DNA of 43,159 nucleotides from assembly GCA_027592105.1 (NCBI GenBank), contig JAQCLA010000002.1, positions 1 to 43,159 of the forward strand, in the 5' to 3' direction. Shown piece by piece: positions 856-14,129 of the stretch; positions within the stretch are counted from its first letter, which is position 1; every line of letters begins with the position of its first letter. This DNA is from Pseudomonadota bacterium (GTDB taxonomy: Bacteria; Pseudomonadota; Alphaproteobacteria; Rhodobacterales; Rhodobacteraceae). The notes beneath the pieces were generated by a model, which made no database searches, was not told the DNA's origin, and saw nothing but the letters and a program-made list of their open reading frames with translations. The position numbers and the translations under genes were made by a program.

Positions 856-1944
856 TCAGGATATGCGGATACGCGGGTTCAGATACACATAGCCGATATC
901 CGAGATCAGCTGTGTCACCAAAACCACGAAGACGGCCACGACCGAACAGGCCAGCAGCAATTCAATGTCATTGTTCGAGGCGGCCTGAACCAAGGTCCAG
1001 CCAAAGCCGTTGTAGTTGAACAATGTCTCAACGATGACGACGCCGGTCAAAAGCCACGGGAATTGCAGCATGATGACGGTGAAGGGCGCGATTAGCGCGT
1101 TTCTAAGCGCGTGCTTGAGCACGATATTGCGAAAGCTCACCCCTTTGAGGCGGGCTGTGCGGATATATTGCGCGGTCATCACCTCGGCCATCGAGGCGCG
1201 CGTCATCCGCGCGATATAGCCCATGCCGTAAAAGGCGATGGTCATCACGGGCAAGGTGAAATTCCAGAAATTCGGCCCATCCATCGCGCTGCGCGCCGAG
1301 CCGAGGAAAAGGGTGCCGCTGTCAAGCCAGCCCCATTGCACCAGCAAGGGCGAAATCCCCGTCTGGGAAGAGGCCAAAAGCACGATGAAGATCACCCCCG
1401 ACACATATTCCGGCGTCGCCGTCGTGCCGATGGAGAAGGTGGACAAGACACGATCCGTGCGGCTGCCCTCGCGCATACCGGCCAGAACGCCGACCAAAAG
1501 CGCTGATGGCACGATCACGGCAAAGGCCCAGAACATCAAGATCCCGGTCAGCGCCAAGCGGCCACCGATGATATTGGCAACCTCGTCGTCCGAGACGGTG
1601 GAATGGCCCAGATCACCCTGCAGCAGGCCGCAAAAACGCGGTGCGGTTTCGGGCGTGTCGCCCGCATCCAAACAGCGCCCCCGCCATTGCCCTGTGGGTT
1701 CATCCAGCCGCACCCAACCTGGCACTACGCCCAGCCATTCGCCATAGCGCATGGCCAATGGACCGCCATAGCCGTTGCGATCGAGCCACGAGACGACCTC
1801 GGCATCGCTCATGCGCGCATTGCCTTGGGTCTTGGCTAGTTTTTCGAGGTTCGGGGCGAGATTGGTGAGAAAAAACACCACGAAGGTCAGGCAAAGCGCC
1901 GTCAGGATCATGACGCCAAAGCGGCGCAGGATGAAAAATGCCAT
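856..1944 (-). CDS. Peptide ABC transporter permease, DppB-like
   Basis: Inner-membrane permease, about 362 residues, partner of the DppC-like protein downstream. It begins MAFFILRRFGVMI, a typical DppB N-terminal transmembrane segment, followed by a large extracytoplasmic region (about residues 35-125) and the permease core with ALRNALIAPFTV, the EAA-type cytoplasmic loop region. The reading frame is open to 2007, but the ATG at 1944 is preferred because it starts at the conserved N-terminus and has AAGGA about 11 bases upstream. It sits between the binding protein and DppC gene in the usual A-B-C order. Substrate (dipeptides, oligopeptides, other small solutes) cannot be told from sequence. 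Confidence 0.9.
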   Translation of the reverse strand: MAFFILRRFGVMILTALCLTFVVFFLTNLAPNLEKLAKTQGNARMSDAEVVSWLDRNGYGGPLAMRYGEWLGVVPGWVRLDEPTGQWRGRCLDAGDTPETAPRFCGLLQGDLGHSTVSDDEVANIIGGRLALTGILMFWAFAVIVPSALLVGVLAGMREGSRTDRVLSTFSIGTTATPEYVSGVIFIVLLASSQTGISPLLVQWGWLDSGTLFLGSARSAMDGPNFWNFTLPVMTIAFYGMGYIARMTRASMAEVMTAQYIRTARLKGVSFRNIVLKHALRNALIAPFTVIMLQFPWLLTGVVIVETLFNYNGFGWTLVQAASNNDIELLLACSVVAVFVVLVTQLISDIGYVYLNPRIRIS

Positions 1945-5874: not shown

Positions 5875-6609
5875 ATGTCCGATAGCCCAACCGCACCGGC
5901 CGATGCCCGCTACAGCCGGGTGATGTTGAAAATCTCGGGCGAGGCGTTGATGGGCGATCAGGGATATGGCCTGCATCCGCCAACGGTCGAGCGCATCGCG
6001 CGCGAGGTGAAATCGGTTCATGATCTGGGTGTCGAGATTTGCATGGTCATCGGTGGCGGCAACATCTTTCGCGGCTTGCAAGGCAGCGCCCAAGGCATGG
6101 AACGCACAACCGCCGATTATATGGGGATGCTGGCCACGGTGATGAATGCGCTGGCGATGCAATCCTCGCTGGAATCGATTGGCGTCTATACCCGCGTGAT
6201 CAGCGCCATCACCATGAACGAGGTGGCCGAGCCCTATATTCGCCGCCGCGCGATCCGCCATCTGGAGAAAAAGCGCGTCTGCATCTTCGCCGCTGGCACG
6301 GGCAACCCCTATTTCACCACCGATACCGCCGCGACCTTGCGCGCCTCCGAGATGGATTGTCAGGCGATCTTCAAAGGGACCAAGGTCGATGGTGTCTATG
6401 ACAAAGACCCCAAGAAGCACGCCGATGCCAAGCGCTATGAGACTGTCACCTATGACGAGGTCTTGGCCCAGCATCTTGGTGTGATGGATGCTTCGGCCAT
6501 CGCCCTGGCGCGTGAGAATAGCCTGCCCATCATCGTGTTCAGCCTTGATGAGCCGGGTGGTTTCAAGGGTATTCTGGCCGGGCGCGGCACCTATACCAAA
6601 GTGTCCTGA
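5875..6609 (+). CDS. pyrH: UMP kinase
   Basis: Phosphorylates UMP to UDP with ATP in pyrimidine nucleotide synthesis; hexameric amino-acid-kinase-fold enzyme of the cytoplasm. 244 residues. Landmarks: [19 protein letters not shown] near the N-terminus, [13 protein letters not shown], and [20 protein letters not shown] in the C-terminal nucleotide-binding half. The open frame runs upstream to 4642 through antisense miaA; the real start is ATG 5875, with AAGGAG about 8 bases before it, where homology begins. First gene of the envelope cluster and followed by frr as in most bacteria, but rpsB-tsf, its usual upstream neighbours, are about 30 kb away. Confidence 0.96.
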
Positions 6610-6715
6610 ACGCCACCTCGGGCAATTGTCTGGGCGGATTCGGCAAGTCGGTTCTGGAAACCGCGCGCGGCTTTGGGTATCACGCCCCCAACAGGAGCGA
6701 TAAAGGGCCGAGCAG

Positions 6716-10069: not shown

Positions 10070-11398
10070 ATGGAATTCATTCCCCAGTTCGGCAATTTCG
10101 CCTTCACGATCGCGGCTTTCGTCGCGGCCTTGTCCATCATCGTGGCGATCCATGAATATGGGCATTACATCGTGGGCCGTTGGTCGGGTATCCATGCCGA
10201 GGTGTTCTCGATCGGTTTCGGCCCGGTCTTGCTTGGCCGCACGGACCGGCACGGCACGCGCTGGCAGATCGCGGCGCTGCCTTTCGGGGGGTATGTAAAA
10301 TTCCTGGGCGATGCGGATGCCGCCAGCGGCAAGGACGGCGAGGCGATGGATGCGCTTGATGTGACCGAGCGGCGACGCTCCATGCATGGTGCGCCGCTTT
10401 GGGCGCGTGCGGCCACGGTTGCGGCGGGGCCTGTGTTCAACTTCATCTTTTCGATCCTGATTTTCGCAACGGTGTTGTTCTTCACCGGTCGTCCGACCGA
10501 AGAACCGCGCGTCGGCGCACTCACCCCGCTGCCGGCCGAGATGCAACAGCTGATGGCGGGCGACCTGATCTTGGCACTCGATGGTCAAGAGGTTTCGGCC
10601 TTTGGTGATGTGTTCACCATCGCCGAGGATCTGCCGCCTGCGCCAAGCGTGGTCTACACCGTGGAACGTGACGGCGCGGTGATCCAGACCGAGGCGGCCT
10701 TTCCTCTGATCCCGCTGGTCGATACCGTGGCGCCGCAATCGGCGGCCTTTGCCGCGGGCTTGCAGCAAGGCGATGTGATCCGCGCGGTGGATGGCGCGCC
10801 CATCTATGCGTTTCGCCAATTGCGCGACACGGTTGCCGTCGCCGAAGGCACACCGCTGACGCTTTCGATCTGGCGGGCCGGCGCGCCGGTCGAGGTGACG
10901 TTGATCCCACGCCGCACCGATCTGCCGCTGGCCGAGGGCGGCTTTGAGACGCGCTGGCTGATCGGCGTGACGGGTGGTTTCAGCTTCGAGCCGGTGCGCG
11001 AGGGTGTTGGCCTGTTCGCATCCATCGGTTTCGGGGCAGAGCAGACATGGTTTGTCGTGCGGTCATCGATGTCGGGGCTTTGGCATATCATCACCGGCGC
11101 GATTTCGTCGTGTAACCTGCAAGGACCGATCGGGATTGCCGAAACCTCGGGCGCGGCGGCAAGCCAAGGCATCGACAATTTCATCTGGTTTATCGCGGTC
11201 TTGTCGACCGCTGTGGGCCTGTTGAACCTGTTTCCGATCCCCGTTCTGGATGGCGGACATCTGGTTTTTCACGCCTATGAGGCGGTCAGCGGCAAGCCGC
11301 CATCGGATAAGGCGATGCGGTTGTTCATCACCCTCGGTTTGACGCTGGTTTTGTCTCTCATGCTGTTTGCGCTGACCAACGATATCTTTTGCCCCTGA
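10070..11398 (+). CDS. rseP: RIP metalloprotease RseP (site-2 protease)
   Basis: Zinc intramembrane protease; in relatives it cleaves anti-sigma factors and remnant signal peptides. 442 residues, inner membrane. The zinc motif HEYGH is at residues 28-32 in the first membrane segment, the third ligand lies in NLFPIPVLDGGHLVFH (Asp near 394), and two PDZ-like regions lie between (about 125-290), one including GDLILALDGQEVSAFGDV and the other GLQQGDVIRAVDGAPI. It follows dxr by 7 bases. The usual placement before bamA is kept, with a small ORF between. Confidence 0.95.
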   Translation: MEFIPQFGNFAFTIAAFVAALSIIVAIHEYGHYIVGRWSGIHAEVFSIGFGPVLLGRTDRHGTRWQIAALPFGGYVKFLGDADAASGKDGEAMDALDVTERRRSMHGAPLWARAATVAAGPVFNFIFSILIFATVLFFTGRPTEEPRVGALTPLPAEMQQLMAGDLILALDGQEVSAFGDVFTIAEDLPPAPSVVYTVERDGAVIQTEAAFPLIPLVDTVAPQSAAFAAGLQQGDVIRAVDGAPIYAFRQLRDTVAVAEGTPLTLSIWRAGAPVEVTLIPRRTDLPLAEGGFETRWLIGVTGGFSFEPVREGVGLFASIGFGAEQTWFVVRSSMSGLWHIITGAISSCNLQGPIGIAETSGAAASQGIDNFIWFIAVLSTAVGLLNLFPIPVLDGGHLVFHAYEAVSGKPPSDKAMRLFITLGLTLVLSLMLFALTNDIFCP

Positions 11399-11496
11399 GG
11401 CGGGCGTTCATCTTCACGGGAATTCCATAAGGCTGCCGCAGCATTGCCACAATACGGGGAGAGGGTGACAGCACGTCGCCCAACCCGGAGCATGCC

Positions 11497-11634
11497 ATGA
11501 AACTGCTTATGGAAAGCACCCGCAGCATGTCGCTTTTGGTCCTGTTCAACATGGACCGTTTCTTGGTGCCGCTTTTGATCATCGCGGCGCTTTTTCTCGC
11601 GGGCGCGTTGTTCGACTACGCCACCGAGTTCTAG
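11497..11634 (+). CDS. Small putative membrane protein, 45 residues
   Basis: Not recognised. ATG at 11497 with GGAG six bases upstream opens a 45-codon frame ending in TAG at 11634. It starts MKLLMESTRSMSLLVLF and has a single hydrophobic segment (about residues 21-38) with a short polar tail ending in Asp-Tyr-Ala-Thr-Glu-Phe. That is consistent with a one-span inner-membrane protein. It lies on the same strand between rseP and bamA, 98 bases after rseP. Codon choice resembles neighbours. A real small protein is plausible but unproven; no family name can be assigned. Confidence 0.55.
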   Translation: MKLLMESTRSMSLLVLFNMDRFLVPLLIIAALFLAGALFDYATEF

Positions 11635-11654
11635 GCGCGCTTGCACCCTCATCG

Positions 11655-11680
11655 CGCCCTTGCGGGGGCGGTGATCTTTC
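11655..11680 (+). terminator. Weak possible terminator before bamA
   Basis: CGCCC and GGGCG form a 5-bp stem with a 6-base loop, 20 bases after the small ORF, followed by a T-containing but interrupted tail. Stability is modest; listed because it would separate rseP and the small ORF from bamA. Confidence 0.25.
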
Positions 11681-11710
11681 GGTTTTGCAGCACGCGCCTT
11701 TGGGTTCGTT

Positions 11711-11745
11711 TTGACAACCCACCGACCCTCCGCTAGGCAGGAAAT
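11711..11745 (+). promoter_or_regulatory. Possible promoter for bamA
   Basis: A perfect TTGACA (11711-11716) is followed after 17 bases by TAGGCA, a poor -10. The -35 match and placement 60 bases before the bamA start suggest a promoter, but the weak -10 leaves it uncertain. Confidence 0.35.
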
Positions 11746-11774: not shown

Positions 11775-14129
11775 ATGAGTCGGCATGTCCTGTTTTCGCC
11801 GTCGCGTATGAGGCGTCAGCTAATCGGTGCGTTGCGCCTGCGGTCTCTATCCGGCCTGTTTGCGGTGCTTTTGGTCATCTCGGGAAGTTTGATCGCCCCA
11901 TCGGCAAATGCACAAACCTTTAGCTTTTCGCGTTTCGATGTCGTGGGAAATGCGCGGATCAACGATTCTGCCATTTTGACCTATGCCGCGATCACACCGG
12001 GCAGCGAAGTCTCTGGCGCGCAGGTCAATGATGCGCTGCAACGCTTGCAGAACACCGGGCTGTTTGAATCGGTCGAGATCACGCCGCGTGGCAACACGCT
12101 GGTTATCACCGTGCAGGAATATCCCACGATCAACATCATCTCGATCGAAGGCAATGAGCGGCTGGATGATGACGCGCTTTTGCCGGTCATCAGCTCGACA
12201 CCGCGCCGTACCTATTCGCCCAGTGTGGCCGAACAAGACGCCAATGCCATCGCCGAGGCCTATCGCGTCTCGGGCAGGTTGACCGCGACTGTGACGCCGC
12301 GCGTCATTCGGCTGGCCGATAACCGCGTCAATCTGGTCTTCGAGATCGCCGAGGGCCGCGTGGTGGAAACCGAGCGCATTACCTTTGTCGGCAACCGCGC
12401 CTATTCCGATCGCCGCTTGCGCCTTGTGCTGGAAAGCACGCAGGCCGGGATTTTGCGCCAGATCATCCGCCGCGACACCTTCATCGCCGAGCGGATCGCG
12501 CTTGATCGGCAGCTTTTGTCCGATTTCTACCTAGATCGCGGCTATGTCGATTTTCAAATCCTGAGCGTGACACCCGAACTCGCGCGTGGGCGAGACGCAT
12601 ATTTCGTGACCTTCAACATCCGCGAAGGTCAAAGCTTTTCGTTGGGTACGATCGCGACCACCTCCGAGATCTCCGAGGCCGATGCTGCGATCTATCAAGA
12701 TGTCATTCGCATCCGCTCCGGCCAAACCTATAGTCCGCGCTTGATCGAGACCACGATCAGCCGGATGGAGGCTTTGGCCACGCAGCAAGGCCTGCGTTTC
12801 GTGCGGATCGAACCGCGCATCACGCGCAACGAAGAGACACGCACGCTGGATGTCGAATTCCTGATCCGTCGTGGTGAGCGGGTCTTTGTCGAGCGTATCG
12901 ATATCGAAGGCAATGTGACGACGCTCGACAGCGTCATCCGTCGCCAGTTTACCACGGTAGAAGGTGACCCCTTTGATCCGCGCGCCATCCGGCAAGCGGC
13001 CGAACGCATCCGCGCGACCGGCTTTTTCGCCGATGTCGATGTTGAATCGCGCGCTGGCACATCTGCCGACCAGATCATCGTCGATGTCGATGTCGAAGAG
13101 CAGCCGACCGGCACCTTGGGATTTTCGGCAAGTTTCTCGACCGATACAGGGCCGGGGCTTGCGGTAAACTTCGCCGAGTCCAACTTCCTTGGTCGCGGCC
13201 AGTCGTTGGATTTTGGCTTCAACACGACCGATGGCAGCCGCGCCTTCAACCTGTCGTTCACGGAACCCGCTTTCCGTTCGCGCGATCTGGAGTTGGGGCT
13301 GAACGCCTTTTATACCGAGACCAACGATCAAAACCGCAATTTCGACACGCTTGATGTCGGGCTGCGCACCAGCTTGGGCTTTCCGATTTCCGAATTTGGT
13401 CGCCTGAATACATATGTCGGCTTAGAGCAAAACGAGATCTCGGGGCTTGATGCGGCCAGCAGTTCGCCCATCTTGTTTGCCGAACAGGGCGAGCGCGTTT
13501 TGTCCTTTGTCGGGCTGCAATATGCCTATGACACGCGCAATGGTGGGCTTGATCCGACGCGCGGTGTGCGGCTGCAGTTCGGGCTCGAATATGCAGGTTT
13601 GGGTGGCGATACCGAGTATCTGCGCGCAAGCTTCCTCGGCATCGCAGAGCAGCAAGTGCTGCGCGAAGATGTAACCTTGCGTGCCAGTTTCGAAGGCGGC
13701 GCGCTGGAGATGTTGGGCGGGTCAAGCCGGCTTTCGGATCGTTTCTTCCTGTCCAGCCGCCAGATGCGTGGTTTCGATGCCTTCGGCCTTGGGCCGCGCG
13801 ATATCGGTGCAACCAACCAAGATGCGCTTGGTGGCAATTTCTTCACGGTCGCGCGCTTCGAGGCGGCATTCCCCTTGGGGCTTCCTGATGAATACGGGAT
13901 TTCGGGTGGGCTGTTTTATGACATCGGCTCGGTCTGGGGGCTTGATAACAGGGTGGGGGCCGGCGGGGCACTGGTTGATGACAGCCAGCAATTCCGTTCC
14001 TCGATCGGTGTGTCGATTTTCTGGAACACGGCGATCGGACCGCTGCGCTTCAACTTCTCGCGCGCGCTCGAATTCGAAAGCTACGACCGGACACGCGATT
14101 TCGATCTGACCGTCGAGACGCGGTTCTAA
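11775..14129 (+). CDS. bamA: Outer membrane protein assembly factor BamA
   Basis: Central pore-forming component of the BAM complex that folds beta-barrel proteins into the outer membrane. About 784 residues. A signal peptide ends in PSANA before QTFSF (cleavage near residue 46). Repeated POTRA domains fill about residues 48-430, with typical segments VVGNARINDSAILTY, IEGNERLDDDALLPV, FVGNRAYSDRRLR and IEGNVTTLDSVIRRQF. A barrel follows and ends in an aromatic residue (VETRF), as outer-membrane proteins do. The frame extends to a TTG at 11760; ATG 11775 is preferred, and ATG 11808 is another possibility. Followed by skp. Confidence 0.96.
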   Translation: MSRHVLFSPSRMRRQLIGALRLRSLSGLFAVLLVISGSLIAPSANAQTFSFSRFDVVGNARINDSAILTYAAITPGSEVSGAQVNDALQRLQNTGLFESVEITPRGNTLVITVQEYPTINIISIEGNERLDDDALLPVISSTPRRTYSPSVAEQDANAIAEAYRVSGRLTATVTPRVIRLADNRVNLVFEIAEGRVVETERITFVGNRAYSDRRLRLVLESTQAGILRQIIRRDTFIAERIALDRQLLSDFYLDRGYVDFQILSVTPELARGRDAYFVTFNIREGQSFSLGTIATTSEISEADAAIYQDVIRIRSGQTYSPRLIETTISRMEALATQQGLRFVRIEPRITRNEETRTLDVEFLIRRGERVFVERIDIEGNVTTLDSVIRRQFTTVEGDPFDPRAIRQAAERIRATGFFADVDVESRAGTSADQIIVDVDVEEQPTGTLGFSASFSTDTGPGLAVNFAESNFLGRGQSLDFGFNTTDGSRAFNLSFTEPAFRSRDLELGLNAFYTETNDQNRNFDTLDVGLRTSLGFPISEFGRLNTYVGLEQNEISGLDAASSSPILFAEQGERVLSFVGLQYAYDTRNGGLDPTRGVRLQFGLEYAGLGGDTEYLRASFLGIAEQQVLREDVTLRASFEGGALEMLGGSSRLSDRFFLSSRQMRGFDAFGLGPRDIGATNQDALGGNFFTVARFEAAFPLGLPDEYGISGGLFYDIGSVWGLDNRVGAGGALVDDSQQFRSSIGVSIFWNTAIGPLRFNFSRALEFESYDRTRDFDLTVETRF

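What the first reader, a model, noticed from the sequence alone, without database searches (positions are those of the whole stretch)
11497..11634. Unlisted 45-codon membrane ORF between rseP and bamA
A GGAG ribosome site at ideal spacing, one hydrophobic segment, normal codon use and a position between a site-2 protease and the outer-membrane assembly factor make this a good small-protein candidate. It could be linked to envelope stress or simply a local membrane peptide. Such ORFs are often missed by annotation.
Basis: partly seen in the sequence, partly recalled or inferred. Interest (0 to 1): 0.5.

Follow-up and report, generated by a model that had tools for sequence, protein, structure and literature searches.

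The report
Stress-promoter-linked small membrane protein beside bamA
The 45-codon reading frame between rseP and bamA is a real gene for a tiny inner-membrane protein found in most Rhodobacteraceae and in no protein-family library searched, and it carries its own promoter with a repeat operator of the kind bound by envelope-stress response regulators.

Summary
Window 11497-11634 encodes 45 residues. Homologues occur in 143 of 199 sampled genera of the family, one copy each, none with internal stops; across the class outside the family only one weak, stop-broken match was found. Of 100 homologues fetched by place, 94 lie between rseP and bamA; 5 keep bamA without adjacent rseP. Codon changes show purifying selection (dN/dS 0.15 to the nearest relative), and no other frame looks coding. 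No Pfam, NCBIfam or PDB family matches. Members (~42 aa) have a positively charged N-terminal half, an N-[W]-D-R motif, then one membrane helix (N-in/C-out). Unexpected: 50-70 nt upstream of the start lies a tandem GCC-N8-GCC operator (72/100 loci; 4.9 expected) followed by a -10-like element. GCC-N8-GCC is the reported Sinorhizobium ChvI consensus, and the genus carries a pckA-chvI-chvG-hprK locus. bamA has its own TTGACA promoter after the ORF (TTGAC in 97/100). Best reading: a separately promoted small inner-membrane protein under a ChvI-type envelope-stress regulator. Its partner, and whether ChvI is the regulator, are untested.

The parts
11424..11431 (+). weak third operator repeat (TCCATAAG), 11 bp upstream of the next
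   Evidence: sequence read directly; weak G/C preference at -22/-20 in the 129-site matrix
11435..11442 (+). operator repeat 2 (GCCGCAGC)
   Evidence: GCC at 11435, exactly 11 bp before the next GCC (GCC-N8-GCC)
11446..11453 (+). operator repeat 1 (GCCACAAT), 51 nt upstream of the start codon
   Evidence: GCCNNAWT found in 93/100 homologous upstream regions, 3.6 expected, 9 in downstream regions
11461..11466 (+). -10-like element (GAGGGT; family consensus TANNNT); weak in this genome
   Evidence: A at +16 from the repeat in 96% of 129 sites, T at +20 in 47%
11487..11490 (+). GGAG ribosome-binding site, 6 nt before the ATG
   Evidence: sequence
11497..11634 (+). small-protein gene, 45 codons plus stop: predicted N-in/C-out single-pass inner-membrane protein, N-x-D-R motif at residues 18-21, transmembrane helix about residues 22-41
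   Evidence: helix 2-43 predicted
11649..11675 (+). terminator-like hairpin between the small gene and the bamA promoter
   Evidence: shuffle z-score only -1.6 for 11635-11710; terminator-like structure in 19/100 loci against 0.6 in shuffles
11711..11739 (+). bamA promoter: TTGACA, 17 nt, TAGGCA
   Evidence: TTGAC between the small gene and bamA in 97/100 loci, 15.5 expected; same layout and kept in L031, which lacks the gene
10070..11398 (+). rseP-type site-2 protease (neighbour)
   Evidence: Peptidase_M50 and PDZ
11775..14129 (+). bamA (neighbour)
   Evidence: five POTRA stretches and Omp85

Best explanation
Window 11497-11634 is a genuine gene of a Rhodobacteraceae-wide, vertically inherited small-protein family. 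It is made from its own promoter, whose -35 region is covered by 11-bp-spaced GCC repeats; an OmpR-family response regulator, most likely ChvI of the ChvG/ChvI envelope-stress system, binds there and switches the gene on when the envelope is disturbed. The product is a single helix of about 42 residues in the inner membrane, N-terminus inside: a short basic stretch and an N-[W]-D-R motif sit at the cytoplasmic face, and the membrane helix packs through small residues against an inner-membrane partner whose activity it adjusts (candidates: RseP or another envelope quality-control or assembly protein; self-association is possible). Shown here: gene, family, selection, synteny, operator-like repeats. 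Inferred: topology (from charge bias), regulator identity, activation rather than repression, partner and effect.
For: Gene: one intact copy in 143/199 genera; dN/dS 0.15 to the nearest relative and pN/pS lowest in this frame; synteny 94/100 with rseP and bamA. Topology: 2.26 K/R per protein up to and including residue 21, 0.03 after it, in 155 distinct members; N18 96%, D20 99%, R21 85%, L32 97% conserved; small residues at 31, 35, 36, 39; one helix 2-43 predicted. Own promoter: GCCNNAWT in 93/100 upstream regions (3.6 expected), GCCNNAWT-N8-A in 90/100 (0.5 expected), GCC-N8-GCC in 72/100 (4.9 expected), the large excess being at periods 11 and 22 only; in ten loci without a detectable gene the element is absent in eight. 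In an 800-kb sample of same-genus genome G006, not used in building the matrix, three sites stand out (27.0, 25.8, 22.8; next 16.5), the second being this gene. Regulator: N-GCC-N8-GCC is the S. meliloti ChvI consensus as quoted in PMC9731502; G006 has pckA / OmpR-type regulator / ChvG-like kinase (NF058527, 358.8 bits; Sensor_TM1) / hprK in order.
Against: No expression, protein or binding data. The ChvG-like kinase scores below the curated cut-off of the Caulobacter-tuned model, and Caulobacter ChvI was assigned a different motif (TTGC-N3-GCAA, PMC9731502). Other OmpR-family regulators also bind direct repeats of about this period. The chvI promoter itself shows no strong site in the sampled genome. 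This window's own operator is weaker than the family consensus (two mismatches to the strict pattern; one other such match in the window, about what chance gives) and its -10 is poor. The window's genome is incomplete (78%) and its hprK contig ends before chvG/chvI. No partner is tested. The gene is absent from some close relatives, so it is not essential to the family.
Confidence: 0.6

Rival explanations
1. Real small membrane protein, but the repeat operator belongs to an OmpR-family regulator other than ChvI (or to another tandem-binding factor); the link to envelope stress, if any, is through that factor.
For: Only the layout GCC-N8-GCC is matched, from a quotation of the S. meliloti consensus; CenR of Rb. 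sphaeroides, also an envelope regulator, uses a direct repeat TGA-N8-TGA of the same period.
Against: GCC half-sites fit ChvI and not TGA-N8-TGA; a chvIG-like locus is present in the genus.
Confidence: 0.25
2. Its job is tied to bamA: stress-induced transcription from the upstream promoter reads through the small gene into bamA, raising BamA under stress, while TTGACA gives the basal supply; the small protein is a partner product of that unit.
For: The gene keeps bamA, not rseP, in 5/6 odd loci and in Roseovarius UBA6217, where rseP lies on another contig.
Against: A conserved separate bamA promoter lies after the gene (97/100), and terminator-like hairpins in 19/100 against 0.6 by chance; protein-level selection means the peptide matters by itself; one Pararhodobacter (L074) has a weak homologue beside rseP without bamA.
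Confidence: 0.2
3. Dedicated modulator or substrate of the neighbouring site-2 protease RseP (a one-helix, N-in protein, the orientation of known site-2 protease substrates).
For: Adjacent to rseP in about 95%; the rseP homologue takes part in loss of the anti-sigma factor ChrR in Rb. sphaeroides (PMC3818230); topology fits.
Against: Usually stays with bamA when separated from rseP; rseP is kept in genomes that lack the gene (L031, L045, L047 and others).
Confidence: 0.2
4. Chance or antisense-driven ORF, or a type I toxin.
For: Small, hydrophobic; antisense ORFs overlap it.
Against: Frame-specific selection, single copy at a fixed locus in 143 genera, conserved polar motif, own promoter; no known RNA family at the locus.
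Confidence: 0.02

Closest known systems
Stress-induced small single-pass inner-membrane regulators of other bacteria (e.g. MgrB, AcrZ, MgtS; from general knowledge)
   Same: 30-50 residues, one helix, short polar ends, production under a two-component or stress promoter, adjusts a larger membrane protein (the last inferred here)
   Different: no sequence relation found in Pfam, NCBIfam or PDB; different lineage, locus and motif
ChvG/ChvI regulon of Alphaproteobacteria
   Same: GCC-N8-GCC direct repeat in the promoter; envelope-linked genes as targets (PMC9731502)
CenR regulon of Rhodobacter sphaeroides (PMC9275681)
   Same: OmpR-family direct repeat of 11-bp period upstream of envelope genes
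   Different: half-site is TGA, not GCC

Membership tests
Protein-coding gene of a conserved small-protein family | open, collinear frame in relatives at the same locus | tested here: met
Protein-coding gene of a conserved small-protein family | purifying selection in that frame | tested here: met
Protein-coding gene of a conserved small-protein family | translation product detected | not testable with these tools
   needs Ribo-seq or tagging
Any Pfam/NCBIfam family or solved structure | significant profile match | tested here: not met
   only scattered hits of one or two members with E of 0.001 or worse
Single-pass inner-membrane protein, N-in/C-out | one hydrophobic helix with positive charges on the N side | tested here: met
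   (prediction, not experiment)
ChvI regulon | GCC-N8-GCC direct repeat in the promoter | tested here: met
   72/100 upstream regions, 4.9 expected; present in the window at 11435/11446
ChvI regulon | chvG/chvI present in the organism | tested here: inconclusive
   present in same-genus G006; the window genome's hprK contig ends before the genes; PF13756 domain not found in the genus
ChvI regulon | ChvI binds and changes expression | not testable with these tools
   needs ChIP-seq and a chvI mutant
Type I toxin | antisense RNA antitoxin, mobile or multi-copy occurrence | tested here: not met
   single copy, fixed locus; no known RNA family there

The most novel reading that the evidence does not exclude
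A core small protein of Rhodobacteraceae, absent from the family libraries and controlled by ChvI, acts in the inner membrane to tune outer-membrane protein assembly or RseP-dependent sigma-factor release, giving this lineage a small-protein arm of its envelope-stress response that has not been described.
Probability: 0.3. Interest if true: 0.75.

Novelty: new member of a known kind. Interest (0 to 1): 0.52.

Why it matters
It adds a conserved gene, found in about seven of ten sampled genera of a major marine bacterial family and unknown to the profile libraries, at one of the central envelope loci. The operator found with it gives a direct, testable handle on what the ChvG/ChvI system controls in Rhodobacteraceae, and a matrix for finding the rest of that regulon.

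Tried and rejected
A combined pattern with a fixed TAG found no site in 15 genomes: too strict. The Pfam domain PF13756 as a marker of ChvG failed in the whole genus, so synteny with hprK was used instead. Exact-pattern sites in the window's own genome (6 against 0 for the reversed pattern) are partly inside genes; two look intergenic with the same spacing to a -10-like A, too few for a regulon claim. Rfam: nothing at this locus. Chance ORF and antisense ORF rejected on selection by frame. I first took the gene for the last member of the rseP operon because no TTGAC lies upstream of it; the repeat promoter replaced that. Searches of the open library found no paper describing this gene or locus; most subscription papers are not held, so this is weak evidence. 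Whether public annotations list the ORF could not be checked.

Full report
Observation. The ORF is as described: 11497-11634 (+), ATG to TAG, 45 residues, GGAG six bases before the start. Its neighbours are a Peptidase_M50/PDZ protease (rseP) and a POTRA/Omp85 protein (bamA, start at 11775). The window lies in an incomplete genome (78%, 377 contigs) of a Roseicyclus/Roseibacterium-like member of the Rhodobacteraceae (nearest named loci).

Is it a gene? A search with the 45 residues found homologues in 11 of 12 other genomes of the genus and in further genera; the strong hits lie between rseP and bamA. Taking 80 named rseP loci without regard to the ORF, 63 have a homologue (E < 1e-3) after rseP, all on the + strand. 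A profile of 61 members finds exactly one copy in 143 of 199 genomes of the family, each from a different genus, none with an internal stop. In a class-wide sample of 142 genomes it finds only the window, one other member of the family, and a weak hit broken by three stops. Codon comparison of eleven same-genus or near copies gives dN/dS 0.15 against the nearest relative and pooled pN/pS 0.52, against 0.78-1.87 in the other five frames; changes per codon position are 0.35, 0.17, 0.45. The gene is thus real. It can be lost: L031 (a Roseicyclus MAG), Haematobacter, Mangrovicoccus, Pseudoruegeria, Fluviibacterium and a few others have no convincing match there or elsewhere in their genomes. Some that seemed to lack it (Limimaricola, Pararhodobacter, one Roseobacter) have a short or very diverged ORF in the same place, so the true range may be wider.

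Anatomy. The 155 distinct members have a median of 42 residues. Positions (window numbering): Y8, R9, G10 common; N18 96%, W19 60%, D20 99%, R21 85%, L32 97%; small residues at 31, 35, 36 and 39. Members carry 2.26 K/R up to and including residue 21 and 0.03 after it, a strong positive-inside signal for N-in/C-out with the helix at about 22-41. AlphaFold2 gives one helix 2-43, with or without the alignment; this says little about function. No Pfam, NCBIfam or PDB family matches.

Transcription. bamA has its own promoter after the small gene: TTGAC between them in 97/100 loci (15.5 expected), typically TTGACA with a -10 about 17 nt on and about 60 nt before bamA; L031 keeps it after losing the gene. 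Terminator-like hairpins lie between the small gene and that promoter in 19/100 loci (0.6 in shuffles), and in only 1 between rseP and the gene. The window has a candidate at 11649-11675, of modest strength. Upstream of the gene TTGAC is not enriched (6/100, 11.7 expected). Instead a different element stands out: GCCNNAWT in 93/100 upstream regions (3.6 expected; 9 in downstream regions), GCCNNAWT-N8-A in 90/100 (0.5 expected), and pairs GCC-N8-GCC in 72/100 (4.9 expected), with the large excess at periods of 11 and 22 bp only. The element lies mostly 45-75 nt before the start and is followed 16 nt on by a nearly invariant A within a partial TANNNT. The matrix was built by selecting GCCN[CT]A[AT]T, so those columns are fixed by choice; the unanchored counts are the fair test. 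Related loci are not independent, so the counts are not probabilities; but the surrounding intergenic sequence has diverged, so the repeat is under selection. In ten loci without a detectable gene, eight also lack the element. In the window the repeats are GCCGCAGC (11435) and GCCACAAT (11446); this copy has two mismatches to the strict form and by itself would not be significant: its meaning comes from the family.

Which regulator? GCC-N8-GCC is the S. meliloti ChvI consensus as quoted in PMC9731502 (the original, Ratib 2018, is not held). PMC9731502 itself proposes another motif for Caulobacter, so transfer between orders is not safe. Rb. sphaeroides CenR uses TGA-N8-TGA (PMC9275681). The same-genus genome G006 has pckA, an OmpR-type regulator, a kinase whose best NCBIfam match is ChvG (358.8 bits, below that model's Caulobacter-tuned cut-off) with Sensor_TM1, hprK and rapZ in order, the conserved place of chvI and chvG noted in PMC4550343. 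In an 800-kb sample (23%) of G006, which was not in the training set, the matrix yields three outstanding sites: this gene, one beside mraZ, and one 53 nt before a possible 66-codon ORF; the next scores fall to the level of shuffled sequence. That suggests a small regulon rather than a general sequence habit.

Locus logic. Of 100 homologues fetched by place from the family search, 94 have both neighbours, 5 have bamA but not adjacent rseP, and 1 has rseP with the bamA match further off. In Roseovarius UBA6217 rseP lies on one contig followed by an amidase gene and a PBP1a-like gene, while the small gene and bamA sit together on another. Inserts between rseP and the gene include a photolyase-like gene (L117) and an isochorismatase-like gene (L108) (names from sequence resemblance, not searched). 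The contrary case is a weak homologue in a Pararhodobacter (L074) beside rseP, with bamA on another contig. So the gene tends to keep bamA, though the two are separately promoted.

Explanation. The best-supported account is a separately promoted small inner-membrane protein under an OmpR-family, probably ChvI, envelope-stress regulator, acting by packing its helix against an inner-membrane partner. Steps shown: gene, family, selection, synteny, promoter element, charge bias. Steps inferred: regulator identity, direction of control, partner, effect. Rivals are listed with their tests. The kind of thing is known (small stress-regulated membrane proteins); the family and its operator are, as far as these tools show, not filed.

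Noticed in passing
window 1101-1279 (+): Rfam RF02647 Cis52 sRNA (Ruegeria), 138 bits, well over its threshold.
   Followed up: no
window 11711-11739: Conserved TTGACA-N17-TAGGCA-type promoter of bamA; TTGAC there is nearly universal in the sampled Rhodobacteraceae.
   Followed up: partly
L289:9261-9303: Strongest copy of the GCC-repeat promoter in the G006 sample, overlapping the mraZ start and pointing away from it; could drive an unknown RNA (no Rfam match).
   Followed up: partly
L277:6357-6399 and ORF 6453-6653: Third strong GCC-repeat promoter, 53 nt before a 66-codon basic ORF of no known family, after an scpB-like gene.
   Followed up: partly
L251:1501 and L252:1501 (window's own genome, C39 and C52): Apparently intergenic GCC-repeat sites with the same spacing to a -10-like A, before a 125-aa membrane ORF and before the start of a possible TrgA-family membrane protein.
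   Followed up: partly
L031: Close Roseicyclus MAG that has lost the small gene and its operator but kept the bamA promoter.
   Followed up: yes
L062 / L243 (Roseovarius sp. UBA6217): rseP and bamA separated; the small gene stays with bamA; rseP is followed by an amidase gene and a PBP1a-like gene.
   Followed up: yes
L117:751-2316: Photolyase/cryptochrome-like gene inserted between rseP and the small gene.
   Followed up: no
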